Assembly (NCBI RefSeq): GCF_900112195.1
Contig: NZ_FOKR01000003.1
Location: 81,329 to 145,328 of the forward strand
Source: Butyrivibrio sp. YAB3001
GTDB lineage: Bacteria; Bacillota; Clostridia; Lachnospirales; Lachnospiraceae
Length of the DNA stretch: 64,000 nt
Direction: 5' to 3'
The notes beneath the pieces were generated by a model. That model ran no database searches, was not told the origin of the DNA, and worked only from the letters and a program-made list of their open reading frames with translations. Shown here one piece after another: positions 18,039-52,387 of the stretch. Each line of letters starts with the position of its first letter. Positions within the stretch are counted from its first letter, which is position 1. The translations under genes and the position numbers were made by a program.

Positions 18039-19382
18039 ATGGAAACAACACAGAACAGGCCCATATACAAGGCCGCCGCAATAATCAGTTACATCATAGG
18101 TTTCATTTACCTAAAATATATGTGCTTTGGAGACAGCTTCTGCCGTAGTGATTTTTTCAGAATGCACTTCGGACTTAGAATACTCATATTCGCTGTAATA
18201 TTTGTAATATGCACCGAACTGTTTGCACACAAGTTGGGAATAACCTACAAAGCACTTTCAGAAAAAAACAATTCCAAGGTCGAACCATTTATCTATATGA
18301 TATGCATCGCCCTGCAGTCCATAAGTCTTGCAGTTTGGCATTATCACGATGACTGGGAATTTATACAGCTTCTATTTTGGCATTTCACCATAATTTATTA
18401 TGTTCTTGCAAGAACCGGGTCTCTTGCCGCAGGAAGAAGCGGAATACTTTTCCTTCTCGACTGTTTTCAGGGATTTTTCACTATCCCACTCTCAAATATC
18501 GGGCTCAGATTTACATCAATTTTCAAGAAAAATGAAACTGATAAGTCACCTGATGAAACCATTAGTAAAAAGAGCTTTCTCACTCTTCAGCATGTTATAA
18601 CTATAACCATAAGTCTTTTTATCGCCCTGATTGTCTGCCTGATTGCCTATTCTCAGCTTGCAGATGCTTCAAAAACTTTTGGAAAACTTGGCGATAAAAT
18701 GTACAGCGATGTCATTGAATTTATAAATAAGGGGTTTTTTTCATCTCTCTATGACAACATCGCCTGTTTCCTCTTCTCGATTCCGATCAGCTGGTATCTC
18801 TTTAGCCTGGTTGCCGGTGGTTTCAAGAAAGGAAAGCCCTACTGTACAGATACTCAGTTTGAAGCTGAAACAAGCACTCTTCACAGATTGCCTAACTATT
18901 CAGCATTTATAATCATAGGCAGCGTATGCATTCTCTATACAGTTTTTTTGGCAACCTCTGTTTATGATTTCATATATCACAAAGGATTATTTGCTGCGAC
19001 TGCCCATGAAGCATCAGTACGTGCCGTTGGAAGCTTTTACAATCTTATAAATGTAGTTCTTTTAAACTTCGCTATTCTCGCCGGCTCCTGCATTTTCTCA
19101 AAGAAAGCCTTATGGGAAGAAAAAATTAGCAGAATCCTTGTTACAATCCTGTTTGCATTTGCCTTCTGTTTTGCAGTTTTAGCAGCCTGCAACCTGTGCG
19201 GCGTATACATTGCGCTTTTTGGTATTACTCCAAGAAGGATACTTTCATCCTGGGTTGTCATGAACATCATCATCTGGTGCATACTCATGATCATTCGTTT
19301 TTACAAAAAAATACCTGCCGCCCAGTATGGAATCATCTTAGCGGCAGTATCTTTTTCAATCATAGTATGTTTTAAGTTTTAA
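18039..19382 (+). CDS. DUF4153/DUF4173-like polytopic membrane protein
   Basis: 447 residues, about ten transmembrane helices, resembling DUF4153/DUF4173 membrane proteins found next to DUF2975/HTH pairs in Clostridia. The start is ATG 18039 with GGAGG 5-6 bases before it; a TTG at 18027 is the weaker alternative. Third gene of the DUF2975-HTH operon. Its last 79 bp (19304-19382) recur 4.1 kb downstream as a decayed copy at 23441-23519, bracketing the agr-like cassette. Function unknown. Confidence 0.8.
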   Translation: METTQNRPIYKAAAIISYIIGFIYLKYMCFGDSFCRSDFFRMHFGLRILIFAVIFVICTELFAHKLGITYKALSEKNNSKVEPFIYMICIALQSISLAVWHYHDDWEFIQLLFWHFTIIYYVLARTGSLAAGRSGILFLLDCFQGFFTIPLSNIGLRFTSIFKKNETDKSPDETISKKSFLTLQHVITITISLFIALIVCLIAYSQLADASKTFGKLGDKMYSDVIEFINKGFFSSLYDNIACFLFSIPISWYLFSLVAGGFKKGKPYCTDTQFEAETSTLHRLPNYSAFIIIGSVCILYTVFLATSVYDFIYHKGLFAATAHEASVRAVGSFYNLINVVLLNFAILAGSCIFSKKALWEEKISRILVTILFAFAFCFAVLAACNLCGVYIALFGITPRRILSSWVVMNIIIWCILMIIRFYKKIPAAQYGIILAAVSFSIIVCFKF

Positions 19383-19411: not shown

Positions 19412-19458
19412 ACCTGAATTATTCACGGCTTGGTAATTAAGCCGTGAATAATTCAGGT
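19412..19458. terminator. Long perfect hairpin between convergent genes
   Basis: A 20-bp arm (19412-19431, starting ACCTGAATTA) is perfectly repeated in inverted orientation at 19439-19458 around a 7-base loop. It lies 29 bp after the DUF4153 stop and 28 bp from the end of the convergent ABC permease gene. Neither strand shows a clear T-run, so it is either a bidirectional terminator of unusual form or a structural relic of rearrangement. Confidence 0.6.
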
Positions 19459-19486: not shown

Positions 19487-20233
19487 TTACTTATCAGTTG
19501 AAAGACCTTTCTGAAAATGGATTAAAATAATGCAAACAGCCACCCAGGCTGCCAATGCCAAAATATTAATCAATTCCAAATCCACTCTATACCACACTCG
19601 AACCAGTATCTTGTTCATATGATAAACAGGATTAACATATACAAAGTACTGCAACACCTTTGGCATCTTATCCACAGGCATGATCATTCCTGATGCAAAC
19701 AATACATATTGGAATCCAAGTATAGTAAATGGCATTACCTGCCTGCTATTCTTAAAAAATCCATGAAGTGTAAGGCTGAGGAGCATCATGATGACCACTG
19801 ATATCAAAAATGCCAGGAAGAACATGACCATGTTATCGGATAAAGGAATCTTGAAAACGAAAACTGCAATTGCAATCATTTCAAAAAAGCCAAGAACAGA
19901 TATAAGGATTCCTCTGAGTGAATATGTCAAAACCAGATTGAACAGACTTATTGGAGACAAAATGAGTCTTTTGAATATTCCGCTCTGTTTATCGGTCACA
20001 TACTGAGTTCCTATATTAAAAAAGACTGTCAAAAAAGAAATAAGAATCATATACATCGGAATATACTGAGCAAATCCGTCTATATTACCATAGGACTTAG
20101 CCATAGATCCTGCATATACCACAAAGAATAGTCCCGGTAAAAATAAAATTGGCAATGCAAAAAACGGCTCTCTAAAGAAAATCACCAAATCATACCAAAA
20201 CTGTTTCCAAATACTTTTTACTGATAATCTCAC
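19487..20233 (-). CDS. ABC-2-type transporter permease
   Basis: 248 residues with six predicted transmembrane helices in the ABC-2 arrangement. The conserved F-A-S-G-M-I-M-P-V-D segment near residue 183 and Y-V-N-P-V-Y-H near 200 are typical of drug/peptide-type ABC-2 permeases. The start ATG overlaps the stop of the ATPase gene by 4 bp (20230-20233), so the two are coupled and form one exporter. With the AgrD-like gene just upstream on the same strand, it may handle the peptide or a product under its control. No protease domain is present. Confidence 0.9.
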   Translation of the reverse strand: MRLSVKSIWKQFWYDLVIFFREPFFALPILFLPGLFFVVYAGSMAKSYGNIDGFAQYIPMYMILISFLTVFFNIGTQYVTDKQSGIFKRLILSPISLFNLVLTYSLRGILISVLGFFEMIAIAVFVFKIPLSDNMVMFFLAFLISVVIMMLLSLTLHGFFKNSRQVMPFTILGFQYVLFASGMIMPVDKMPKVLQYFVYVNPVYHMNKILVRVWYRVDLELINILALAAWVAVCIILIHFQKGLSTDK

Positions 20234-20980: not shown

Positions 20981-21118
20981 TCAATTTACTTTGCGTAATT
21001 TTTCTAATGCCTTAGGCATCTTGGGCTGATAAAACCAAAATGCACAACTTGTATTTGCCTGCGTTATTGCTACCTTCTTAGCCATATTGATTACTGCTTT
21101 TCTCCCAAAATCTCTCAT
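20981..21118 (-). CDS. agrD: AgrD-like cyclic lactone autoinducer pre-peptide
   Basis: A 45-codon frame with the full AgrD architecture: an amphipathic, basic N-terminal helix (1-20), the signal core ANTSCAFWF with the ring Cys at residue 25, then the C-terminal recognition block YQPKMP followed by a charged tail (K-A-L-E-K-L-R-K). By analogy with AgrD processing, the product would be a thiolactone between Cys25 and the C-terminal Phe29, with a short N-terminal tail. The adjacent minus-strand GHKL kinase and LytTR regulator are the AgrC/AgrA-type pair, strongly supporting the call. No clear ribosome site is seen, and ATG 21085 is an alternative start. No AgrB protease lies nearby. Confidence 0.85.
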   Translation of the reverse strand: MRDFGRKAVINMAKKVAITQANTSCAFWFYQPKMPKALEKLRKVN

Positions 21119-21194
21119 TTTTCATACTTGTTTTTTGATTTTTAATTTTTTTATTTTTGAACAGTCGATCAAGTTCTTTTACAGATTAACAAAT

Positions 21195-21227
21195 AAAAAA
21201 GGATTATGGCTTTTATTGCCATAATCC
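21195..21227 (-). terminator. Rho-independent terminator after the kinase gene
   Basis: The arms GGATTATGGC (21201-21210) and GCCATAATCC (21218-21227) surround a 7-base loop. On the minus strand the stem is followed by six T. It ends the kinase/regulator transcript and implies that the peptide-ABC genes have their own promoter in 21119-21194. A T-run also follows on the plus strand. Confidence 0.85.
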
Positions 21228-21242: not shown

Positions 21243-22511
21243 TCATCTAAGATAAAGCATTGTTTTTACCCTAAATATATTGTTTTCATCTGATGTTTCC
21301 ATAATACCATTGTACTTCTCCACAACTCTTCTTACGTTCTGAAGTCCGAAGCCATGATTGCCACTATCAGCCTTTTGTGTCAAAAGATTACCATTATTCC
21401 ATCGAAGTTTTCCTTGAAAAGGATTTTCCATAGTTATGAACATCTGGTTCTTTACCATTTTAATGGAACAATCGATATTCCTTTTATCTTTGTCAATCTT
21501 GCTGCATGCTTCTATAGCATTATCAAACAGATTTCCGAGAATAACAGTTATATCATAATCATCTATACCCATTGTTTCAGGTATGCTGGTTTCTATATTC
21601 ACAGAAACATCCTTGAGTGAATTAATCTTATAATTCAGGATACTATCCACTGTAGGCTGTCCTGTATATACTTTGGGAACAGCCTGCTTAGTCTCTTGCT
21701 GAAGCCTATCTAAATACTCATTCAGACTGGAATAATCCTTCTGCGCCAGATAAGAACGCATTACCAGAATATGATTCTTAATATCATGATAGATACCTCG
21801 AACTCTCTTTTGTGAATCCATGAGAATATCCATTTCTCTAAGATAACTTTCTTTTTGTTCCGTAAGTATAATATTTCTAACTCTTTCTTTTTCTGAATTT
21901 ATCAGAACATCATAGATATAGAGAATAATAAAATCCACTACTGTCATCAAAAGCGTAGCCTGTACAAGAAATTCTGCCTGCATCTGATTTGAAAGCATTA
22001 TCATGAAATATACCAGTACCAGTTGTATCAGAACAACACCTCCCCAGCATCTCCAGGGAACATAATCACTACTTTTCATAGCGCCAAACTTCTTAAAAAC
22101 CTGCACATTAAGTGCCAAAGCAACACACTGAAAGATTAATGGCATCTGCGATGCAATTCCTTGCTTTTCCCAAATATTATGAGGAGTAAATTTGCAAAAC
22201 ATCATTGCCATACATTCTGAAGCCACCATCATCACATACATCATTACAACCATTATGACATTGTTTCTGATTTTTTTCTCATATAATCTTGAAAGCAGTA
22301 ATAAGCCAACCAGGTTCAGAACCATCATTACCATTGGTATTCTAATAAATACATATACTGCACATATCATTATGTAATAAATGAAGTACGCCGCAAATTC
22401 TTTATAAATCGGAATACTTATCTGCTTATCATTACGAAAAAAACGTGCAATACTAAATGTACATAGAGCATAGGTAATCAAATAAACCATAAGCATGTTA
22501 AATTCAATCAT
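21243..22511 (-). CDS. AgrC-like sensor histidine kinase (GHKL type)
   Basis: 422 residues. The first about 195 residues form six or so transmembrane helices, the AgrC-type peptide-sensing part. A dimerisation helix carries the phospho-acceptor His in G-I-Y-H-D-I-K-N-H near residue 240, and the C-terminal GHKL ATPase has the N-box L-F-D-N-A-I-E-A near 336 and G-box H-G-F-G-L-Q-N-V near 390. Its start overlaps the response regulator stop by 4 bp. The natural ligand is presumably the cyclic peptide encoded 125 bp downstream. Confidence 0.93.
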   Translation of the reverse strand: MIEFNMLMVYLITYALCTFSIARFFRNDKQISIPIYKEFAAYFIYYIMICAVYVFIRIPMVMMVLNLVGLLLLSRLYEKKIRNNVIMVVMMYVMMVASECMAMMFCKFTPHNIWEKQGIASQMPLIFQCVALALNVQVFKKFGAMKSSDYVPWRCWGGVVLIQLVLVYFMIMLSNQMQAEFLVQATLLMTVVDFIILYIYDVLINSEKERVRNIILTEQKESYLREMDILMDSQKRVRGIYHDIKNHILVMRSYLAQKDYSSLNEYLDRLQQETKQAVPKVYTGQPTVDSILNYKINSLKDVSVNIETSIPETMGIDDYDITVILGNLFDNAIEACSKIDKDKRNIDCSIKMVKNQMFITMENPFQGKLRWNNGNLLTQKADSGNHGFGLQNVRRVVEKYNGIMETSDENNIFRVKTMLYLR

Positions 22512-23218
22512 CCTACCATCCCCATTTCACTAATTAGTTTCCTTACTTCTTTTCTCTTAGCCTGACTTATTTCCAGCTCCTCATTGTTATCCAGTACCAG
22601 CCTGTCATAATAAAACTCCGACACTCTGTTGTAATTTACAAGAATTGATTTATGGCAATAAAAAAAACTTTTATCTTTCAGTTCTTCATACACATCCTTC
22701 AATGATGCATAAAACTCATCCGTCTTTGTCTTTGTGACAATAATAGTTTTCTTAAGACTACTCTCAAAATACAAAATATCATCTAATAAGCATCGCACTG
22801 TTTGGCCTTTTTTATGATAGACAAACATCTCTCCGCTTCTATTCATTGAGTTTTCAAGTTTATTCATCACTACTTCTAAATCCTGATAACTAACAGGTTT
22901 GATCAGAAAGTCAAACGTATTCACTTTAAACAAATCCATTGCATAACCGCACTTAGAAGAAACATAAATAATTTTAAGACTATAATTATTTAATTGCTCA
23001 CGTACACGAACACCCACCTCTACTCCATCAATATGCGGCATCTCTATATCCATGAACAATACATCCCACTTTTCTTTTTTTAGTTGATTCAGAGCATCCT
23101 GACCTGAATATACCTTCCTGATAACAAATTCTTCCTTATTAGTAATTTCGTACTGTTCCAAATATCTTTCAAGGTCATCACAAAAAACAGGATCATCATC
23201 ACACAATAGTATCTTCAC
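22508..23218 (-). CDS. AgrA-like response regulator (receiver + LytTR DNA-binding domain)
   Basis: About 236 residues. The N-terminal receiver has the acidic pocket C-D-D-D near residue 6, the phospho-acceptor Asp in F-M-D-I-E-M-P near 55 and the K-P-V motif near 104. The C-terminal LytTR domain (about 135-235) carries H-K-K-G-Q-T-V and F-Y-R/C-H-K-S-I-L-V-N blocks. The start is chosen at GTG 23218 because GGAGG lies six bases ahead; ATG 23233 or an upstream start is possible. It is coupled to the kinase gene by a 4-bp overlap. Expected targets are its own promoter and the peptide-ABC promoter. Confidence 0.92.
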   Translation of the reverse strand: MKILLCDDDPVFCDDLERYLEQYEITNKEEFVIRKVYSGQDALNQLKKEKWDVLFMDIEMPHIDGVEVGVRVREQLNNYSLKIIYVSSKCGYAMDLFKVNTFDFLIKPVSYQDLEVVMNKLENSMNRSGEMFVYHKKGQTVRCLLDDILYFESSLKKTIIVTKTKTDEFYASLKDVYEELKDKSFFYCHKSILVNYNRVSEFYYDRLVLDNNEELEISQAKRKEVRKLISEMGMVG

Positions 23219-23291: not shown

Positions 23292-23409
23292 ATTATATAA
23301 ACCAATAAACTATTGAAGTTGTCAGACTTTATCATTTTTCGACTATTATTTATTATGTGCTTTCATGTCGCTTATCACATATTGCTATATAATGCTCACA
23401 TATTGCTAT
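23292..23409 (-). promoter_or_regulatory. Promoter region of the two-component genes with tandem direct repeats
   Basis: The 13-mer CACATATTGCTAT occurs at 23376-23388 and again at 23397-23409, a 21-bp pitch that places both copies on the same face of the helix, as for paired LytTR sites. A TATAAT on the minus strand lies at 23292-23297 without a good -35, which suits activator dependence. The repeat does not match the published LytTR consensus closely. Confidence 0.55.
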
Positions 23410-23440
23410 TTAGATAATTTTGATATGCTTCTTTCCTCTT

Positions 23441-23519
23441 CAAAAAAATACCTGCCGCCTAGTATGAAATCATCTTGGCGGCAGTATCTTTTTCAATTAT
23501 TGTATGTTTCAAATTCTAA
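23441..23519 (+). pseudogene. Decayed copy of the 3' end of the DUF4153 gene
   Basis: 79 bp align without gaps to 19304-19382, the end of the DUF4153 gene, with 8 mismatches by eye. The reading frame is kept (K-K-I-P-A-A-x-Y-x-I-I-L-A-A..C-F-K-F-stop), but CAG has become TAG and there is no upstream coding sequence. Most other differences are synonymous. It is a gene remnant lying between the response regulator promoter and the reductase gene, and forms a direct repeat around the 4.1-kb agr-like cassette. Confidence 0.85.
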
Positions 23520-31684: not shown

Positions 31685-34126
31685 TTAATCCTTGCTGATT
31701 ACTACCTTTGTTCCCTTATGACGCTTGATTCCACTGCAAGCTCCTGCGCAGATCAGTTCTTTTACGAAACTATTTGTGATATCACGATAGCTTGTCTTGC
31801 CATCCTTTTCGTAGTTAAATACGATTTCATCAAAGTCATCGCATTCATAAATTATAGCCATTGAATGACCATTTTCTGCCTTGATAAGAATTATTATCTT
31901 CTGCTCAGTCTTAATCTCGGTGTATTCAAATCCCTCTCCATCAAGGAAATTCTTCAGGTCATCAACTTCTCCTGTCAAAGCTTCCGCTGCCTGTGCCATA
32001 TCAAATTCTTCAGGCGTCTGGTTGTCATCATCGTCGTTAAACTCATCAAGATAAAGTTCTTTTTCATTGATCCCTTCTACTGCTACATCCCCCATTGTAG
32101 TATCCTCCCCCTCAATATTTTCTTCTAGCATTTCTGTAAGAGCAATCTCATCTATTGGTATTTCTTCAGAAGCTATTTCCTCCTGTGGAATCTCTTCTGT
32201 CAAAGCAAACTCTTCAGAACCAACTTCCCCACTTGCCATTTCTTCTGCAGGAATTTCTTCAACAGGTGGCTCTGTAATGGCATCAAGTTCCTTGCTTAAT
32301 ATTGCATCAAGATTCTCCGCCGGTGTCTCTGGAGCCTCCTCAGGCATTGCCTCTACTGAAATATCTGGTGTTTCTTCTATCGGAATATCAGGCATTACAG
32401 GTTCTGCTGAAATGTCTGGAATAGGTTCTTCAGCTGCTGCCAAGGTCTCTGCAGCTTCCATTGCTGCCATTATTGTTTCCATATCAGCTGGTGCTTCTTC
32501 CGCTGCCTCAACCGGCATCTCTGACATTGTCTCCGGAATCGGTGCTGCTTCTACCGGCATCTCTGGCATTGCTTCAGGTATTGGTGCTGCTTCTACTGGC
32601 ATTTCTGGCATTGCCGCCTCAACTGGTGCTGCTTCTACCGGCATCTCTGGCATTGCTGTTTCCACTGGTGCTGCCTCCGCTGCTGGGGCTTCCGCTGCTC
32701 CCATTGCTGCCATTATCGCATCCATATCTGCCGGCGCTTCTGCTGCTGCCTCTACCGGTATCTCCGGCATTGCCTCCGGTATCGGCGCTGCTTCTACCGG
32801 TATCTCTGGCATTGCCTCCGGTATCGGGGCTGCTTCTACTGGCATTTCTGGCATTGCCGCTTCAACTGGTGCTGCTTCTGCTGCTGGGGCTTCTGCTCCT
32901 GCCATTGCTGCCATTATCGCATCTATATCTGTCGGTGCTTCTGCTGCCGCTGCCTCTACCGGTATCTCAGGCATTGCCTCTGGTATTGGTGCTGTATCTA
33001 CTGGAATTTCCGGCATTGCTGTTTCCACTGGTGCTGCCTCTACTGGCATTTCTGGCATTGCCGCTTCAACTGGTGCCGCCTCTGCCACTGGAGCTTCTGC
33101 TGCTCCCATTGCTGCCATTATTGCATCCAAATCTGCCGGCGCTTCCGCTGCTGCTTCCACCGGTATCTCTGGCATTGCTTCCGGTATTGGTGCTGCTTCT
33201 ACTGGTATCTCCGGCATTGCTTCAGGTATTGGTGCTGCTTCTACTGGCATTTCTGGCATTGCTGTTTCCACTGGTGCTGCCTCCGCTGCTGGGGCTTCCG
33301 CTGCTCCCATTGCTGCCATTATCGCATCCATATCTGCCGGTGCTTCTGCTGCCTCTACTGGGATTTCCGGCATTGCTGCTTCCACTGGTGCCGCCTCTGC
33401 TGCTGGGGCTTCCGCTGCTCCCATTGCTGCCATTATCGCATCCATATCTGCCGGCGCTTCTGCTGCCGCTGCCTCTACCGGTATCTCTGGCATTGCCTCA
33501 GGTATCGGCGCTGCTTCTACTGGCATTTCTGGCATTGCCGCTTCTACTGGTGCTGCCTCTGGTATCGGTGCTGCTTCTACTGGCATCTCCGGCATTGCTG
33601 CTTCCACTGGTATCTCAGGCATTGCCTCTGGTATTGGAGCTGTATCTACTGGAATTTCCGGCATTGCCGCCTCAACTGATGCTGCCTCTGCTGCTGGGGC
33701 TTCTGTTCCTGCCATTGCTGCCATTATCGCATCCATATCTGCCGGCGCTTCTGCCGCTGCCTCTACTGGTATCTCTGGCATTGCTTCTGGTATTGGTGCT
33801 GCCTCTACTGGCATCTCTGGCATTGCTGCCTCTACTGGTATCTCCGGCATTGCTTCCGGTATCGGGGCTGCTTCCACTGGCGCTGCCGCTGCTATCGCCG
33901 CCTCTGCATCAACAGTTTCCTTCATAATCTGATCTAAGTCAGGGAGATCAGCAATAGATCCCACTTCTTCCTTTGGTGGTTCTTTCTTAGGAATCGGTGT
34001 TTCTTCCATGGCAGGAGCAGGTTGACTCAAGGCCTCTTCCTGCTTCATTGCCGCTAAGAGGTCATCCACATTTACAGTTGATAGATCCTGTCCATTTACT
34101 AAATCCTGGGTGCTCATGCCGTCCAT
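31685..34126 (-). CDS. Repetitive Pro/Ala/Glu/Met-rich protein with small C-terminal domain
   Basis: 813 residues from ATG 34126, preceded by AAAGGAG; an earlier ATG at 34147 lacks a site. No signal peptide or membrane segment, so it is probably cytoplasmic. Residues 1-45 contain V-D-D-L-L-A-A-M. Residues about 70-560 are repeats of M-P-E-(I/M)-P-V-E-A-A and A-P-I-P-E-A, interrupted seven times by D-(M/L/I)-(D/E)-x-I-M-A-A-M. After an acidic stretch, residues about 715-813 form a compact alpha/beta domain. Not recognised as a characterised family. The motif resembles the E-I-D-A-L-L-A-A-L CheY-binding segment at the FliM N-terminus (my comparison). Confidence 0.85.
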   Translation of the reverse strand: MDGMSTQDLVNGQDLSTVNVDDLLAAMKQEEALSQPAPAMEETPIPKKEPPKEEVGSIADLPDLDQIMKETVDAEAAIAAAAPVEAAPIPEAMPEIPVEAAMPEMPVEAAPIPEAMPEIPVEAAAEAPADMDAIMAAMAGTEAPAAEAASVEAAMPEIPVDTAPIPEAMPEIPVEAAMPEMPVEAAPIPEAAPVEAAMPEMPVEAAPIPEAMPEIPVEAAAAEAPADMDAIMAAMGAAEAPAAEAAPVEAAMPEIPVEAAEAPADMDAIMAAMGAAEAPAAEAAPVETAMPEMPVEAAPIPEAMPEIPVEAAPIPEAMPEIPVEAAAEAPADLDAIMAAMGAAEAPVAEAAPVEAAMPEMPVEAAPVETAMPEIPVDTAPIPEAMPEIPVEAAAAEAPTDIDAIMAAMAGAEAPAAEAAPVEAAMPEMPVEAAPIPEAMPEIPVEAAPIPEAMPEIPVEAAAEAPADMDAIMAAMGAAEAPAAEAAPVETAMPEMPVEAAPVEAAMPEMPVEAAPIPEAMPEMPVEAAPIPETMSEMPVEAAEEAPADMETIMAAMEAAETLAAAEEPIPDISAEPVMPDIPIEETPDISVEAMPEEAPETPAENLDAILSKELDAITEPPVEEIPAEEMASGEVGSEEFALTEEIPQEEIASEEIPIDEIALTEMLEENIEGEDTTMGDVAVEGINEKELYLDEFNDDDDNQTPEEFDMAQAAEALTGEVDDLKNFLDGEGFEYTEIKTEQKIIILIKAENGHSMAIIYECDDFDEIVFNYEKDGKTSYRDITNSFVKELICAGACSGIKRHKGTKVVISKD
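32455..33910 (-). repeat. Nested GC-rich tandem repeats coding for M-P-E-I-P-V-E-A-A units
   Basis: About 1.45 kb of 27-42-bp units arranged in larger blocks of roughly 150-200 bp, each block ending with D-M-D-A-I-M-A-A-M. Repeats are near-identical in sequence but vary at third positions. The bias creates long stop-free frames on the plus strand that are not genes. Slippage or recombination should make the length variable between strains. Confidence 0.85.
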
Positions 34127-34334
34127 GCTGATTCTCCTTTCAAACAATCTTTATTTTCTATCTCGGCGCATGTTAAATCCTACAAAAAGCGTCTATCTCT
34201 ATTATCGTTTATTTTTGTTTGATTTAAAATAAATTTTCTATAAAATCTAATAATATTTTATTCAATATTATCTCAAATAACGTTTTTTCATATATAATTT
34301 CATAGTAGGATTCGTTCATAAACTGAGGTATGCT

Positions 34335-46776: not shown

Positions 46777-49700
46777 TTATTTCTTCTTATTAACTTTAAC
46801 TATTTTACTTGTAACTATGCTGCCGTCCTGACCTGTAATTTCACACTTAATCTTAAAGCTTAACCATTTCTCCTTTACAGGCATTGTAAGTTTATTTGTA
46901 GTAGCACCTTTTACTGTTGATCCCCAGGTTGTTTTCCAGGTCTTTCCATTGTTGGTACTATACATCCACTTATAACTCTTTGCTCCTGTTGCTGTAACTT
47001 CAAAAGTAGCCTTTTTGCCTACTGCTGCTGTTACATTTACAGGCTGTTTAGTGATTGTTGGCTTTGCTTTTACCTTTACGATGTTACTGCTTATGGTGCT
47101 GCCGTCTTTACCTGTAACGTCACACTTAATCTGATAGTTTAGCCACTTCTCATTTACAGGCATTGTAAGCTTATTTGTAGTAGCACCTTTTACTGTTGAT
47201 CCCCAGGTTGTTTTCCAGGTTTTTCCCTTATTGGTACTATACATCCACTTATAGCTCTTAGCTCCGGTTGCTGTTACTTCAAAGTTTGCCTTTTTGCCTA
47301 CTGCTGCTGTTACATCTACAGGCTGTTTAGTGATTGTTGGTTTTGCTTTTACCTTTACGATGTTACTGTTTATGGTACTTCCGTTCTGACCTGTAACCTC
47401 GCATCTAATCTGATAATTTAGCCATTTCTCCTTTACAGGTATTGTAAGCTTATTTGTAGTAGTACCTTTTACTGATGAATCCCATGATGTATCCCAGGTT
47501 TTTCCCTTGTTGGTACTATACATCCATTTATAGCTCTTTGCTCCGGTTGCTGTAACTTCAAAGGTTGCCTTTTTACCTACTGCTATTGTTACATCTGCAG
47601 GCTGATTAGTTATTGTTGGCTTTGCTTTTACCTTTACAATGTTACTGCTTATAGTGCTTCCATCCTGACCTTTAACCTCACACTTAATCTGGAAGCCCAG
47701 CCATTTCTCCTTTACAGGTATTGTAAGCTTATTTGTAGTAGCACCTTTTACAGATGATGCCCAGGTTGTTTTCCAGGTATTGCCATTGTTGGTACTAAAC
47801 ATCCATTTATAGCTCTTGGCTCCAGTTGCCGCAACTTCAAAGGTTGCCTTTTTACCTACTGCTGCTGTTACATCTACAGGCTGTTTGGTGATTGTTGGTT
47901 TTCCTTTTACCATTACAATGTTACTGTTTATGGTACTGTCATCCTGACCTGTGATCATGCATCTAAACTTATTGCCGAGTACATTTTCTTTTACCGGAAC
48001 TGTCAACTTATTAGTTGTTGTTCCTGTTTCTGATGCTGACCAATCTGTTCTCCATGTACTTCCATTATCAGTCGTAAACTGCCACTGGTAACTCTTTGCT
48101 CCTGTTGCAGCTACTTCAAAAGAAACATTCTCTCCAACTGCCGCTGTTACATCTACAGGCTGCTTGGTAATTGTTGGTTTTACTTTTACAATTACAGTGT
48201 TACTGTTTATGGTACTGCCGTTCTGACCTTTGATCACACATCTAAACTTATAGCCGAGTACGTTTTCTTTTACCGGAACTGTCAACTTATTGGTTGTTGT
48301 TCCTGTTTCTGATGCTGACCAGTCTGTTTTCCATGTACTTCCATTATTGGTTGTATACTGCCACTGGTAACTCTTTGCTCCTGTTGCAGTTACTTCAAAA
48401 GAAACTTTTTCTCCAACTGCTGCAGCTACATTTGCAGGCTGCTTTGTTATCTTTAACGGAGTATTATCACATGTAAACTCCTGTGTATAAATCACTTTTT
48501 CACTTGGAAGCTTATCGGAAGATGAAAAATCCATAACATGGAAGCATCCAACTGATACACCGACAAGCGCTTTTTCAACATCTTTCTTTCCATTTAAAAG
48601 TATTGAATCATAATATGAAGACTGCTTCCAATATCCCAAAGCATCTTCAGGAGTTTTTACAGTTGATAAATTAACGCTTAATTCTTTACCATCTTTCCAT
48701 TTACCAGTCGCCAAGTACCAAAAATCACCATTTGGACGAATACTGGTATTTTGTACACTACACTCTAACGCTCTATTATCAGATTCTTTTTGTAAATTGC
48801 TGTTATACTTTAGCTCGCCAAGTCCATTTTCTTTACGGTACTTATTAGTAAGCTCAAATACTTTTTGCGCATCTTCATGGTCAAAATATCCTTTAACCTC
48901 TTTCACAGAGCCATCTTCATAAGTCACCTTATATGTTTCGTAAGGATGAATATCATATGATTCAATAAGTGTATTGCAATAGTTGCAACGCTTTTCTATA
49001 CATCCCCAGGTTGTGCTTGTTGCTTCTTTGGTTGTAACATACACTGGTTTGATGCTCTTTCCGTCAAGGTATCCCGTATGTACGCAGGCACTTGGAACAA
49101 TTTTCCACTGTGCATAAAGAGTTATTGTCTGATAATTGCTGGTAGCCAGATTACGAACAGTTGCTTTATCTTTATAAGACGTTCCGGTTCCGTCAGCTTT
49201 GGTATTCCAACCAACAAAGGTATTGTATTCCTTTGTCAAAGTACATGCGGGAAGCACATAACTTTGTGAGTTTACACATCCCGTCATAAGTGACATATGG
49301 CCACTTCCGCCATTGCTATTAAAACTAATGTAATAAGATATTTTTGTTTTAGGCTCTGCCGCAACCACATCACTGGTTAATGTTTTGCCGTCAACGCCTG
49401 TTACTACACATCTGAATCTGTAATCATAAAAATCTTCAGAAGTAATCTTGACCGATAAAGTATTTGTCTTATTTCCTGTCTGACTTGCACTACGCCAGGA
49501 ATTAGTTCCTACTGTGCTATATTCCCACTGATAACTCTTGGCTCCCTTGGCAGTAACCTTGAAAACAGCAGTTTCATTAAGTTCAACAGTGACATTTACA
49601 GGCTGCTTTTTTAACTCTAAAGTAGGATTCTCCCTTTCAGAATCCACATCTGCGGTAGTAAACTGCTGAGTCCAGGAAATTTTTTCCTTAGGAACGCCTG

Positions 49701-52296
49701 ATGGATCAGAAAAATCCAATGTATGGAAGCATCCTACTGAAGAACCAACGTAAGGTGTTTTACCATCATCTTTTTCCTTCAAAAGAATAGATTTATACAA
49801 GCTGTAACTTTTCCAGCAATCTATAACCTCTTGTGGAGTATCATACTCATTCGTTCTTAACTCTCCACCGTCTGCCCACTCATCTACTAATGTTTCCCAT
49901 CCTTTTCCATCTGGGCGATATACATTTAAACCGGCTTTAACCTCAAGTGTCCTTAAATCAGATTCATCCTGAGTGCTGTCATTATATACAAGTTCATCAA
50001 GTCCGTTTTCCTTGCGGTATTTATTAGTAAGCTCCCATAACTCACGTGCAGCATCATGATCAAAGTATCCCTTAAGCTCTTGTACGGTACCGTCTTTTAA
50101 TGTAACTTTATAGGTTTCATAAGGGTGAACTTTATGTGTTTCAATTAACTGATCACAAAAATCGCATATTTCCTCGTATTCGCCCCATTCAGTAGCGGTA
50201 GCTTCCTTGGTCACAACATATTTTTTCCCAATAGCCTTACCATTCACATGTCCGCTGTGTTTTCCATCTTTGCAGGCTTCTTTGTCAACTTCCCACTGGG
50301 CATAAAGAGTTACTGTTTCGCCATCAACTTTAGTAAGGTCCTTGACAACTTCTTCATCCCCATACGCTGTACCAGAACCATCTTTTTTTGTATTCCAGCC
50401 CTTAAAAACACTATATTTTCTGGTAAAAATATTTTTTCTAAGAGTGTATGGAACACCACTTTCAAAGTCGCTCTGAGTATAGACAAATGTTGATGCCCCA
50501 TTTCCATCATACTCGATATTATAATGGATAACAGGTTCATCCTCTTCAGTGATAAAGTCCTTATCGCTTAAAGTAATCTCATCTAAATAACCGCCATACA
50601 AAGAGAGTGTGTCTGAATCGTAGGCATATTTTATATCCTGAGGTTCTGAATATGAACCAGAGCCATATATAACGCGCTTCCTATTGATAACATACCCGTT
50701 ATTAACATCTCCGGACTTATAACCCTTCATGAAAAGAGCAGTATGCCCGCCCTCTATCTTATCTGTATCGCAGTTTGTTACATCGACAAGGTAATTAACT
50801 CCATTGAAGCTAACCACATTCCATCTATGACCCTCACCATCCATATCTCCTGTAACACAGTTAACTATTACATCGTTTTCAAAGGTACTAAGATCACACA
50901 AATACTGGAATGCTTTTGCGTAACCCTCACAGACTACATTGGTATCCGGATTGTTATCGAATACATAAATAAGTTCTCGTGGATTACTGTCCCTTTTTGA
51001 GGTAACATAATCCGCTGCATGATGATCATAGGATACCATGCTACATATTATTTCTTTAAAGGCAAGAAGTTTCTCATAATCACCAAGGTCAGCATATCTG
51101 TCTGCTATCTCTTTAGCATTGGTAGCTGCTATACTGGTAGCACTTGTCTTGGCAGTATCAGCCTTATAAACGTAATAAGAAGAAGTTGAACCCTCCTCAA
51201 AAACCGCATAGGCTGCAGAAACCTGTAAAGAAATACTATATTTTCTCGCACGTAAATATCCATCTCTGGTTGCTGTAGTATCTGTTATAGGCTTTGTCTC
51301 TCCTTCAGTGGAAAATGACTGTTGCGAAACTCCCACACTGAATGTTCTTCCAAACCAATATAAAAGCTCTGGATGGTCAGAGTACAATGCATTTACTACT
51401 TTTTTACCATCGAGATTTATTTGAGCATCCAATTCATCTTCAGCCTGTTTTTGTTTTGATTCATTAATCGTTGGAACCCAACAATTATCAGTAAGGGTAC
51501 AATCATACAAATCTTCAACCAGCATTTCAGATTTATCTTCCAAACCTAATTCTGCAGGTGTAAAAGAATAATCAGTATTACTGGCATTTCCGCTTGCTAT
51601 ATCTTCTATCAAAGATAGTGCCTTATCATATATAACTTTTTCAGTGTCACTTAATTTATCATATGCCAAGGCTTTCCTAAAAAGCATTGTTCCGATAAAA
51701 GCATCTGAACGCTCATAATAATCCACACCTAATTCTCTGTCTACATATTTTGCAAACAGGTCATCTTCATCTCTCATATTATCAAGCTGCTGCTCTTCAA
51801 GCTCAATATCCACATATTCTTCAGAATCTATTGAAGAAGCGTCAGAATTAGTGATTTCTTTTTCTGAATCATCTTTCTTAGTATCATCTGTATCAGAATC
51901 TTCTTTCTTAGAATCTTCTGTCAAATCATCTGCTGTATCTTCTTCATTCTCTTCGTCTGATATGCCTTCTTCCTCCTCAGCATTTTCAGATGTCTCAGCA
52001 TCATCTTCTGTTATATTATCTTCCGCTGTGTTATCTTCTGACGCGCTGTCTTCTGCTGTATTTTCTTCTGTTGCGCCATCTTCTGTTGTATTATCTTCTG
52101 ACGTGTTGTCTTCTGTTGTGTTATCTTCTGCTATATTTTCTTCTGCTGTATTTTCTTCTGTTGTATTTTCTTCTAATATTTCATCCAGGAGTAACAGTTC
52201 TTCTTTATCACCGGGATTTTCCTGGGCAAATACCTGTAATGGATATGTCAAAGACATAATTCCTGCTAATATAATTGAGAGTATCCTTTTTTTCAT
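46777..52296 (-). CDS. Giant secreted protein: transglutaminase-like, CAP and Ig-like repeats
   Basis: 1839 residues from ATG 52296 (AAAGGA before it). Order: Sec signal peptide (cleavage after V-F-A), Glu/Asn/Thr acidic repeats (about 35-170), a transglutaminase-like domain with Cys near 455, His near 488 and Asp near 502, then twice the block Listeria-Bacteroides-type repeat, C-x-x-C strand, H-P-Y-E-T-Y-K-V strand, CAP/SCP-like domain (T-N-K-Y-R-K-E-N-G-L) and Ig-like domain. The second block carries six Ig-like copies to the C-terminus. No LPXTG or SLH motif was found, so wall attachment is unclear. A cell-surface adhesin or wall-modifying protein is likely. Confidence 0.85.
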   Translation of the reverse strand: MKKRILSIILAGIMSLTYPLQVFAQENPGDKEELLLLDEILEENTTEENTAEENIAEDNTTEDNTSEDNTTEDGATEENTAEDSASEDNTAEDNITEDDAETSENAEEEEGISDEENEEDTADDLTEDSKKEDSDTDDTKKDDSEKEITNSDASSIDSEEYVDIELEEQQLDNMRDEDDLFAKYVDRELGVDYYERSDAFIGTMLFRKALAYDKLSDTEKVIYDKALSLIEDIASGNASNTDYSFTPAELGLEDKSEMLVEDLYDCTLTDNCWVPTINESKQKQAEDELDAQINLDGKKVVNALYSDHPELLYWFGRTFSVGVSQQSFSTEGETKPITDTTATRDGYLRARKYSISLQVSAAYAVFEEGSTSSYYVYKADTAKTSATSIAATNAKEIADRYADLGDYEKLLAFKEIICSMVSYDHHAADYVTSKRDSNPRELIYVFDNNPDTNVVCEGYAKAFQYLCDLSTFENDVIVNCVTGDMDGEGHRWNVVSFNGVNYLVDVTNCDTDKIEGGHTALFMKGYKSGDVNNGYVINRKRVIYGSGSYSEPQDIKYAYDSDTLSLYGGYLDEITLSDKDFITEEDEPVIHYNIEYDGNGASTFVYTQSDFESGVPYTLRKNIFTRKYSVFKGWNTKKDGSGTAYGDEEVVKDLTKVDGETVTLYAQWEVDKEACKDGKHSGHVNGKAIGKKYVVTKEATATEWGEYEEICDFCDQLIETHKVHPYETYKVTLKDGTVQELKGYFDHDAARELWELTNKYRKENGLDELVYNDSTQDESDLRTLEVKAGLNVYRPDGKGWETLVDEWADGGELRTNEYDTPQEVIDCWKSYSLYKSILLKEKDDGKTPYVGSSVGCFHTLDFSDPSGVPKEKISWTQQFTTADVDSERENPTLELKKQPVNVTVELNETAVFKVTAKGAKSYQWEYSTVGTNSWRSASQTGNKTNTLSVKITSEDFYDYRFRCVVTGVDGKTLTSDVVAAEPKTKISYYISFNSNGGSGHMSLMTGCVNSQSYVLPACTLTKEYNTFVGWNTKADGTGTSYKDKATVRNLATSNYQTITLYAQWKIVPSACVHTGYLDGKSIKPVYVTTKEATSTTWGCIEKRCNYCNTLIESYDIHPYETYKVTYEDGSVKEVKGYFDHEDAQKVFELTNKYRKENGLGELKYNSNLQKESDNRALECSVQNTSIRPNGDFWYLATGKWKDGKELSVNLSTVKTPEDALGYWKQSSYYDSILLNGKKDVEKALVGVSVGCFHVMDFSSSDKLPSEKVIYTQEFTCDNTPLKITKQPANVAAAVGEKVSFEVTATGAKSYQWQYTTNNGSTWKTDWSASETGTTTNKLTVPVKENVLGYKFRCVIKGQNGSTINSNTVIVKVKPTITKQPVDVTAAVGENVSFEVAATGAKSYQWQFTTDNGSTWRTDWSASETGTTTNKLTVPVKENVLGNKFRCMITGQDDSTINSNIVMVKGKPTITKQPVDVTAAVGKKATFEVAATGAKSYKWMFSTNNGNTWKTTWASSVKGATTNKLTIPVKEKWLGFQIKCEVKGQDGSTISSNIVKVKAKPTITNQPADVTIAVGKKATFEVTATGAKSYKWMYSTNKGKTWDTSWDSSVKGTTTNKLTIPVKEKWLNYQIRCEVTGQNGSTINSNIVKVKAKPTITKQPVDVTAAVGKKANFEVTATGAKSYKWMYSTNKGKTWKTTWGSTVKGATTNKLTMPVNEKWLNYQIKCDVTGKDGSTISSNIVKVKAKPTITKQPVNVTAAVGKKATFEVTATGAKSYKWMYSTNNGKTWKTTWGSTVKGATTNKLTMPVKEKWLSFKIKCEITGQDGSIVTSKIVKVNKKK
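46790..48450 (-). repeat. Six tandem Ig-like domain repeats (about 280 bp each)
   Basis: Six units of about 93 codons, each beginning I-T-K-Q-P-x-(D/N)-V and containing A-V-G-(K/E)-x, T-G-A-K-S-Y-(K/Q)-W and T-T-N-K-L-T. Units 3-6 are closest to each other. A more diverged seventh copy is at about 49340-49640. Confidence 0.85.
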
Positions 52297-52337
52297 GTCA
52301 ATCCTTTCTGTCAATCGGCAAAGAAATAATAGGTGCA

Positions 52338-52387
52338 TTGACGCAAATGCGTCAAGATTATAACACACTATACCAAAGGAACGTCAA
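52338..52387 (-). promoter_or_regulatory. Promoter of the surface-protein gene with an 18-bp palindrome
   Basis: On the minus strand TTGACG (52382-52387) and TATAAT (52357-52362) are 19 bp apart. The perfect inverted repeat TTGACGCAAATGCGTCAA (52338-52355) begins one base past the -10 and covers the expected start of transcription, a classical repressor position. The regulator is unknown. Confidence 0.65.

What the first reader, a model, noticed from the sequence alone, without database searches (positions are those of the whole stretch)
20981..21118. Hidden AgrD-type cyclic-lactone peptide gene beside an ABC-2 exporter and AgrC/AgrA pair
A 45-codon minus-strand frame between an ABC transporter and a GHKL kinase encodes a textbook AgrD layout: basic amphipathic helix, ANTSCAFWF core, YQPKMP recognition block, charged tail. 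No AgrB protease gene is near; instead the ABC ATPase starts 22 bp later. The arrangement peptide + ABC-2 exporter + GHKL kinase + LytTR regulator suggests a quorum-sensing circuit in which the exporter is a target or a self-protection/export device, with processing by an unlinked AgrB.
Basis: partly seen in the sequence, partly recalled or inferred. Interest (0 to 1): 0.9.

Follow-up and report, generated by a model that had tools for sequence, protein, structure and literature searches.

The report
Peptide-signal listener with its export pump
A small hidden gene is a real precursor of a bacterial signal peptide, and it sits with its likely receptor, a regulator and an export pump in a five-gene unit whose counterparts in other gut bacteria belong to an antibiotic-making gene cluster, but here the signal-making enzyme was not found and the antibiotic genes are not beside it.

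Summary
The 45-codon frame scores 46.1 bits to the AgrD model TIGR04223 (cut-off 19) and is the genome's only hit over cut-off. It lies in a five-gene unit: AgrA, AgrC, AgrD, ABC ATPase, ABC-2 permease. The two close relatives found in named genomes (L055; L054 with L084; rumen/omasum Clostridia) have these genes in the same order plus AgrB and thiopeptide genes. The window's unit has none of those extras; its assembly (99.98% complete) shows no AgrB and no relative of the thiopeptide dehydratase. A terminator and a 14-bp box before agrD are kept. A 79-bp direct repeat brackets the unit, as an insertion would. The kinase is absent at E<=1e-40 from the 78 other genus genomes. Most likely it is an inserted sense-and-export cassette: a peptide-sensing kinase switches on an exporter that protects against a thiopeptide-like product. 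Function is inferred.

The parts
20981..21118 (-). agrD: AgrD-family peptide precursor, 45 aa
   Evidence: translation; TIGR04223 46.1 bits, cut-off 19
21032..21046 (-). codons of the presumed five-residue ring, CAFWF (residues 25-29)
   Evidence: sequence; identical in P0002; ring size and formation are inferred from the AgrD family
20984..21031 (-). codons of the presumed C-terminal recognition block and charged tail, YQPKMPKALEKLRKVN
   Evidence: residues 30-43 are 14/14 identical in P0002
20230..20958 (-). ABC-2 type exporter, ATPase subunit
   Evidence: PF00005 106.6 bits; 81% identical to the L055 counterpart
19487..20233 (-). ABC-2 type exporter, permease subunit
   Evidence: PF01061 68.4 bits; 80% identical to the L055 counterpart
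21243..22511 (-). agrC-like GHKL sensor histidine kinase, 422 aa
   Evidence: PF14501 91.7 bits; 53% identical to L055 AgrC
22508..23218 (-). agrA-like LytTR response regulator (probable GTG start at 23218 behind GGAGG, my reading; the longest frame starts at 23335)
   Evidence: PF00072, PF04397; 76% identical to L055 AgrA from 23218 on; upstream sequence
21201..21227 (-). terminator-like hairpin between agrC and agrD; suggests that agrD-ABC is a separate transcription unit
   Evidence: similar hairpin right after agrC in L054 and L055
21157..21170 (-). 14-bp box GATCGACTGTTCAA upstream of agrD, candidate AgrA-controlled element
   Evidence: GATCGGCTGTTCAA (13 of 14 the same) at the matching place in L054 and L055, and inverted upstream of agrD in L055 and L084
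19304..19382 (+). left copy of a 79-bp direct repeat: 3' end of the DUF4153 gene with its stop
   Evidence: 71/79 identical to the right copy
23441..23519 (+). right copy of the 79-bp direct repeat: relic of a DUF4153 3' end
   Evidence: 6 of 8 differences synonymous, one makes a stop
19412..19458 (.). perfect 20-bp inverted repeat just inside the left edge of the inserted stretch
   Evidence: I2; no other copy (up to 3 mismatches) in the window, the two 20-kb flanks or the 14 other stretches of this genome checked

Best explanation
The five genes form an inserted 'sense and export' cassette. They correspond to the regulator-plus-exporter part of an Agr-linked thiopeptide cluster, without the signal-making enzyme AgrB, the antibiotic precursors and the maturation enzymes. 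Proposed working: AgrC binds a small cyclic peptide (an AIP) from outside and phosphorylates AgrA; AgrA acts at the conserved box in front of agrD; the operon agrD-ABC-ABC2 is switched on; the exporter removes a thiopeptide-like compound from the cell. With no AgrB the cell cannot make its own AIP by the known route, so it would mostly listen to neighbours that make signal and antibiotic together. Shown by sequence: gene identities, shared order with thiopeptide clusters, conserved terminator and box, flanking repeat, no AgrB and no dehydratase relative found. Inferred: the ligand, AgrA binding at the box, a promoter there, the exporter's substrate, and the protective role.
For: Same five genes in the same order in L055 and, split over two contigs of one genome, in L054/L084, together with AgrB (112 bits in L055), thiopeptide precursors (NF033400 40.9-45.4 bits in L055, 43.5 in L084, cut-off 30) and a dehydratase; in L084 also YcaO (TIGR03604), TIGR03891 and SagB proteins over their cut-offs. 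Identities to L055: AgrA 76, AgrC 53, AgrD 47, ABC 81, ABC2 80%. The terminator after agrC and the 14-bp box are kept. No AgrB over cut-off in the assembly; no relative of the L055 dehydratase at E<=1, in a search that finds it in L054's genome at 78% identity and in L055's own. A 79-bp repeat brackets exactly these genes; G+C of the inserted stretch is 0.342 against 0.387 and 0.403 in the 10 kb on either side; at E<=1e-40 the kinase is in 1 of 79 genus genomes, its own.
Against: AgrD residues 19-43, including the tail thought to be recognised by AgrB, are 25/25 identical to P0002 while the leader is 9/18; the chance of all nine differences of residues 1-43 falling in the leader is 8.6e-5. That speaks for a peptide still processed, in at least part of this lineage. 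The presumed rings of the known clusters (CIFFG, CAWFC) differ from CAFWF, so those producers' signals may not fit this AgrC, and no producer of a CAFWF signal is known. The promoter scan shows no sigma-70-like site on the agr strand between the hairpin and agrD and no excess over shuffles in the region (22 against 20.4); the box at up to 2 mismatches is no rarer than chance in 64 kb (1 found, 0.77 expected), so its weight lies in its conserved place and exactness. The exporter's substrate is untested. Whether the cassette was stripped from a cluster, or is the older state to which antibiotic genes were added, was not resolved.
Confidence: 0.5

Rival explanations
1. It is a complete, ordinary quorum circuit: an AgrB exists in the strain but is missing from the assembly (plasmid, gap) or too divergent to be found, and it processes AgrD in trans to a CAFWF ring, which autoinduces the exporter operon.
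For: AgrD core and tail 25/25 conserved against P0002. AgrB in trans is proposed for Clostridium autoethanogenum agrD2-agrC2 (PMC8748961, passages read).
Against: Assembly 99.98% complete in 55 contigs with no AgrB over cut-off; the best sub-threshold match (13.3 bits) lies in a 548-aa open frame that I judge by its sequence to be a MurF-type ligase, not an AgrB. Of 45 same-family genomes with AgrD, 43 also list an AgrB; the exceptions are this one and G063, 89% complete with its AgrD at a contig end.
Confidence: 0.28
2. It is a decaying remnant of a thiopeptide cluster: the exporter and kinase genes are still open but nothing is regulated, and agrD is left over.
For: AgrB not found, precursors and enzymes not in the window, dehydratase not in the genome; no Shine-Dalgarno-like stretch before agrD, whereas L055 has AAAGGAG; no promoter-like site seen right before agrD.
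Against: All five frames are open; AgrD core unchanged against P0002; ABC and ABC2 still 80-81% identical to L055; terminator and box kept. No fragments of the missing genes at E<0.1 in the window.
Confidence: 0.15
3. The peptide is exported by the ABC-2 transporter itself as a linear peptide, or is itself a small bacteriocin, and no AgrB is needed.
For: agrD and the exporter genes lie 22 nt apart on one strand; no AgrB found.
Against: In L055 the same exporter pair lies with AgrD, AgrB and thiopeptide genes, so an AgrB is there to process the peptide; the Pro-x-x-Pro block kept here is the suggested AgrB recognition site (PMC8748961, passages read).
Confidence: 0.07

Closest known systems
agr quorum-sensing system (agrBDCA)
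   Same: AgrD over the TIGR04223 cut-off, GHKL kinase, LytTR regulator
   Different: no AgrB beside it or over cut-off in the assembly; kinase and regulator far below NCBI's AgrC (staphylococcal) and AgrA equivalog cut-offs (28.2 of 500 and 48.9 of 400 bits); an ABC-2 exporter follows agrD
Agr-linked thiopeptide cluster of rumen/omasum Clostridia (L055/L083 and L054/L084)
   Same: same five genes in the same order, hairpin after agrC, 14-bp box
   Different: window lacks relatives of their AgrB, precursors, dehydratases, YcaO, pyridine-synthase-like protein and SagB; genome-wide only AgrB and the dehydratase were tested
Clostridium autoethanogenum agrD2-agrC2 (PMC8748961, passages read)
   Same: AgrD and AgrC without a linked AgrB
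   Different: that genome has an AgrB elsewhere, proposed to act in trans; here none is found; no exporter is mentioned in the passages read
orphan LuxR receptors and eavesdropping in antibiotic competition (PMC5964356, passages read)
   Same: works like: a receptor without a signal synthase may sense neighbours that coordinate antibiotic production
   Different: acyl-homoserine-lactone system; unrelated proteins

Membership tests
AgrD family (TIGR04223) | score over the curated cut-off | tested here: met
   46.1 bits, cut-off 19
AgrD family (TIGR04223) | Cys, four residues, then Pro-x-x-Pro block and charged tail | tested here: met
   CAFWF-YQPKMPKALEKLRK; same layout in L055 and L084
AgrD family (TIGR04223) | amphipathic N-terminal helix | tested here: inconclusive
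   net +4, hydrophobic moment not above shuffles; nor for the P0002, L055 and L084 peptides (P 0.27-0.90)
AgrD family (TIGR04223) | thiolactone made and exported | not testable with these tools
   needs mass spectrometry
agr system (AgrBDCA) | AgrB endopeptidase in the genome | tested here: not met
   no PF04647 match over cut-off, best 13.3 bits; the same search finds AgrB over cut-off in 60 of 150 and 15 of 79 genomes; assembly gaps and plasmids not excluded
agr system (AgrBDCA) | GHKL kinase (AgrC) and LytTR regulator (AgrA) adjacent to agrD | tested here: met
   PF14501, PF00072, PF04397 over cut-off
agr system (AgrBDCA) | AgrA binds repeats upstream of the target operon | tested here: inconclusive
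   a 14-bp box is conserved in place, but binding is untested, a second repeat half is not clear and no promoter-like site was found there
Thiopeptide biosynthesis cluster | precursor peptide | tested here: not met
   no relative of the L055/L084 precursors in the window at E<0.1; not searched genome-wide
Thiopeptide biosynthesis cluster | dehydratase (LanB-like) | tested here: not met
   protein search of G000 with the L055 dehydratase: none at E<=1; found in G849 (the query's own genome) and G850 (78%). The family-model search is not valid evidence: the same model search misses the known ones
Thiopeptide biosynthesis cluster | YcaO cyclodehydratase and pyridine synthase | tested here: inconclusive
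   no relative in the window; not searched genome-wide
ABC-2 exporter | ABC ATPase plus ABC2 membrane subunit | tested here: met
   PF00005 and PF01061 over cut-off

The most novel reading that the evidence does not exclude
AgrB-less AgrA-AgrC-AgrD-exporter cassettes are a stable, mobile kind of inducible antibiotic immunity: they spread by insertion and let non-producers detect the quorum signal of thiopeptide producers and raise an exporter before the antibiotic arrives, while agrD is kept for a use that does not need the cell's own AgrB.
Probability: 0.25. Interest if true: 0.85.

Novelty: new variant of a known kind. Interest (0 to 1): 0.6.

Why it matters
An Agr circuit built into a thiopeptide cluster, and a pared-down inserted form of it in another bacterium, would tie peptide quorum sensing to antibiotic making and to immunity in gut and rumen Clostridia. 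If non-producers listen to producers' signals to pre-arm an exporter, eavesdropping on antibiotic producers, shown for acyl-homoserine lactones (PMC5964356, passages read), would extend to peptide signals and could be tested with a few synthetic cyclic peptides. Among the papers listed by my searches of the held library I saw none describing an Agr-linked thiopeptide cluster or an AgrB-less agr cassette with an exporter: 15 of 46 listed; 25 of 60; 10 of 10; 20 of 243; 15 of 292; 0 of 0; 1 of 1. These were listings; passages were read in five papers. A survey of the Hungate1000 rumen collection counts 75 TIGR04223 and 11 thiopeptide predictions (PMC13289728, passages), so such peptides may already be annotated one by one.

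Tried and rejected
Whole-genome absence of the dehydratase by the Pfam model PF04738 was discarded: the same model search finds nothing in L055's and L054's own genomes, where the gene is present. It was replaced by a protein search with a positive control.

This is too incomplete to say that the close relatives lack AgrB, so it is not used. P0002 and P0014 share a contig length of 5469 and a source and are probably one contig; this is an inference.

Viral contigs gave no relative of the kinase; plasmids gave 22 records, none covering 80% of the query, at 31% identity or less in the 10 listed. The 18 other same-family genomes matching the kinase profile at E<=1e-60 score 207-294 bits against 752 for the window's own and were not followed as relatives. 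L056 and L057 (27-30% identity) were not followed.

Considered and dropped: that the 548-aa frame with the best AgrB sub-score is an AgrB (it reads as a MurF-type ligase, a judgement from recall); that the DUF4153 neighbour with a sub-threshold Rce1 match (E 0.0037, 18 of 22.4 bits) replaces AgrB (no evidence).

No structure prediction or fold search was run. No tree was built. 

Full report
What is there. The minus-strand frame 20981-21118 encodes MRDFGRKAVINMAKKVAITQANTSCAFWFYQPKMPKALEKLRKVN. It matches TIGR04223 with 46.1 bits against a cut-off of 19 and is the only match over the cut-off in the 4.59-Mb genome. Beside it on the same strand lie a LytTR response regulator, a GHKL kinase of 422 residues, an ABC ATPase and an ABC-2 permease. 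The leader is basic, but its helical hydrophobic moment is not above that of shuffles.

AgrB. The PF04647 search of the whole genome gives no match over the cut-off (best 13.3 bits); the frame with that match reads as a MurF-type ligase, in my judgement from its sequence. The same search finds AgrB over the cut-off in 60 of 150 genomes of the family and 15 of 79 of the genus, so it is sensitive. Over the 150 family genomes there are 82 AgrD matches in 45 genomes. Set against 100 of the 110 AgrB places, 64 have an AgrB within 6 kb and 18 do not: 13 in one genome (G054), three near contig ends (G131 twice, G063 once), one in G082 and this one. Two of the 45 genomes have no AgrB listed: G000 (99.98% complete) and G063 (89% complete).

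Where the unit comes from. A scan of about 85,000 species genomes with the kinase gave two close relatives, L054 and L055 (54 and 53% identity), from rumen/omasum Clostridia, and two distant ones. L055 carries AgrB, AgrA, AgrC, three Cys/Ser-rich precursors, two AgrD genes, the ABC ATPase, the permease and a large dehydratase in one run. L054 carries AgrB, AgrA, AgrC and the start of a precursor before its contig ends; another contig of the same genome (L084) begins with a precursor, an AgrD, the ABC pair and a dehydratase, so the join is inferred. The domain scan of the maturation genes was run on L084: precursor over the NF033400 cut-off; dehydratase with 26.1 bits to Lant_dehydr_N, below the cut-off of 28 (its L055 counterpart has 38.5); a protein with a partial match to the TbtD/PbtD pyridine synthase (51.7 of 325 bits); a YcaO of the SagD family, a Lant_dehydr_C / TIGR03891 protein and a SagB dehydrogenase, all over cut-off; three further proteins without a match. 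L083, the rest of L055's cluster, has frames of mostly like length and beginning in the same order but these were not scanned. Window against L055: AgrA 76%, AgrC 53%, AgrD 47%, ABC 81%, ABC2 80%. So the window has the regulator-exporter part of this arrangement, without AgrB, precursors and enzymes. In the window no piece of the missing genes matches at E below 0.1. Genome-wide, a protein search with the L055 dehydratase finds nothing in G000 at E<=1 and finds the gene in L054's genome (78%) and in L055's own. YcaO and precursors were not searched genome-wide.

Control region. Between agrC and agrD is a hairpin followed by T on the agr strand (21227-21201; five terminator-like sites in the region against 1.4 in shuffles), then the box GATCGACTGTTCAA (21157-21170). 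L054 and L055 have a like hairpin right after agrC and GATCGGCTGTTCAA behind it; the box also stands inverted upstream of agrD in L055 and in L084. At up to two mismatches the box pattern is found once in the window with 0.77 expected by chance and turns up at a few unrelated places in other loci, so it is its conserved place and exactness that count. I read this as a separate, probably AgrA-controlled, promoter for agrD-ABC-ABC2. Against that, the simple promoter scan lists no site on the agr strand between the hairpin and agrD and shows no excess in the region (22 against 20.4). Binding is untested.

Insertion. A 79-bp direct repeat (71/79) brackets the unit: the last codons and stop of the DUF4153 gene (19304-19382) and a relic of the same end at 23441-23519. 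Six of eight differences are synonymous; one of the other two makes a stop in the relic. The two copies therefore probably diverged as coding ends before they came together, as when incoming DNA brings its own gene end. The stretch between is 0.342 G+C against 0.387 and 0.403 in the adjoining 10 kb. At E<=1e-40 the kinase is in 1 of 79 genomes of the genus, its own; in 397 family genomes the other 18 matches at E<=1e-60 are at 294 bits or less against 752; in 391 class genomes at E<=1e-90 only its own was found. The kin of L054 and L055 was not told, so the donor is unknown; their G+C (0.51-0.52) argues against them as direct donors. Among the frames listed in the inserted stretch I see no integrase (only the five named genes were scanned).

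Is agrD still used? The search of 5.8 billion proteins, which reaches only proteins sharing short words with this 45-residue query, scored two candidates: the window's own and P0002 (77%). Residues 19-43 are 25/25 identical and the leader 9/18; all nine differences falling in the leader has probability 8.6e-5. The ring and the tail are thus kept in this pair. This is the main evidence against a pure leftover and the main support for a missed AgrB. P0002 is probably on the same contig as P0014, a kinase 77% identical to the window's (equal contig length and source; inference). Against use: no Shine-Dalgarno-like stretch before agrD, unlike L055.

Mechanism. The best-supported reading is an inserted sense-and-export cassette: outside cyclic peptide, AgrC, AgrA, box, exporter, protection against a thiopeptide-like compound. 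Ligand, binding, substrate and protection are inferred from the corresponding cluster. Without AgrB the cell would listen rather than talk. The presumed rings of the known clusters (CIFFG, CAWFC) differ from CAFWF, so the partner producers remain to be found. That AgrB can serve unlinked AgrD genes is proposed for C. autoethanogenum (PMC8748961, passages read) and suggested by G054.

Novelty. The pieces are known kinds. The combination (AgrA-AgrC-AgrD-exporter without AgrB, corresponding to part of a thiopeptide cluster, bracketed by an insertion repeat) was not seen in the listings; long lists were shown only in part, and the library lacks most subscription journals.

Noticed in passing
G054 loci L085-L092: One unnamed same-family genome has 13 AgrD matches over cut-off and two AgrB genes, none within 6 kb of an AgrD. 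In ten stretches fetched (12 of the 13 places) I read ten AgrD frames; nine stand directly behind their own AgrC-like and regulator pair (in L088 the regulator was not matched by BLAST), one (L091:4480-4620) does not; L093 and L094 showed none by my pattern. It looks like many private peptide circuits sharing unlinked processors.
   Followed up: partly
L055:4726-13245 and L084:29-12958: Thiopeptide clusters with a built-in Agr circuit and, in L055, two tandem AgrD genes with the same ring.
   Followed up: partly
window 19412-19458: Perfect 20-bp inverted repeat with a 7-nt loop at the left edge of the inserted stretch; not reported by the terminator scan; purpose unknown.
   Followed up: partly
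window 31685-34147: 820-aa frame made largely of PVEAAPIPEAMPEIPVEAA-type repeats, with a long open frame (621 aa, 32067-33932) on the opposite strand.
   Followed up: no
window 46777-52368: 1863-aa frame with several similar repeats towards its C terminus (translation; not scanned).
   Followed up: no
window 23375-23412: Tandem pair TCACATATTGCTATATA / TCACATATTGCTATTTA (D13) between the regulator gene and the right repeat copy.
   Followed up: no
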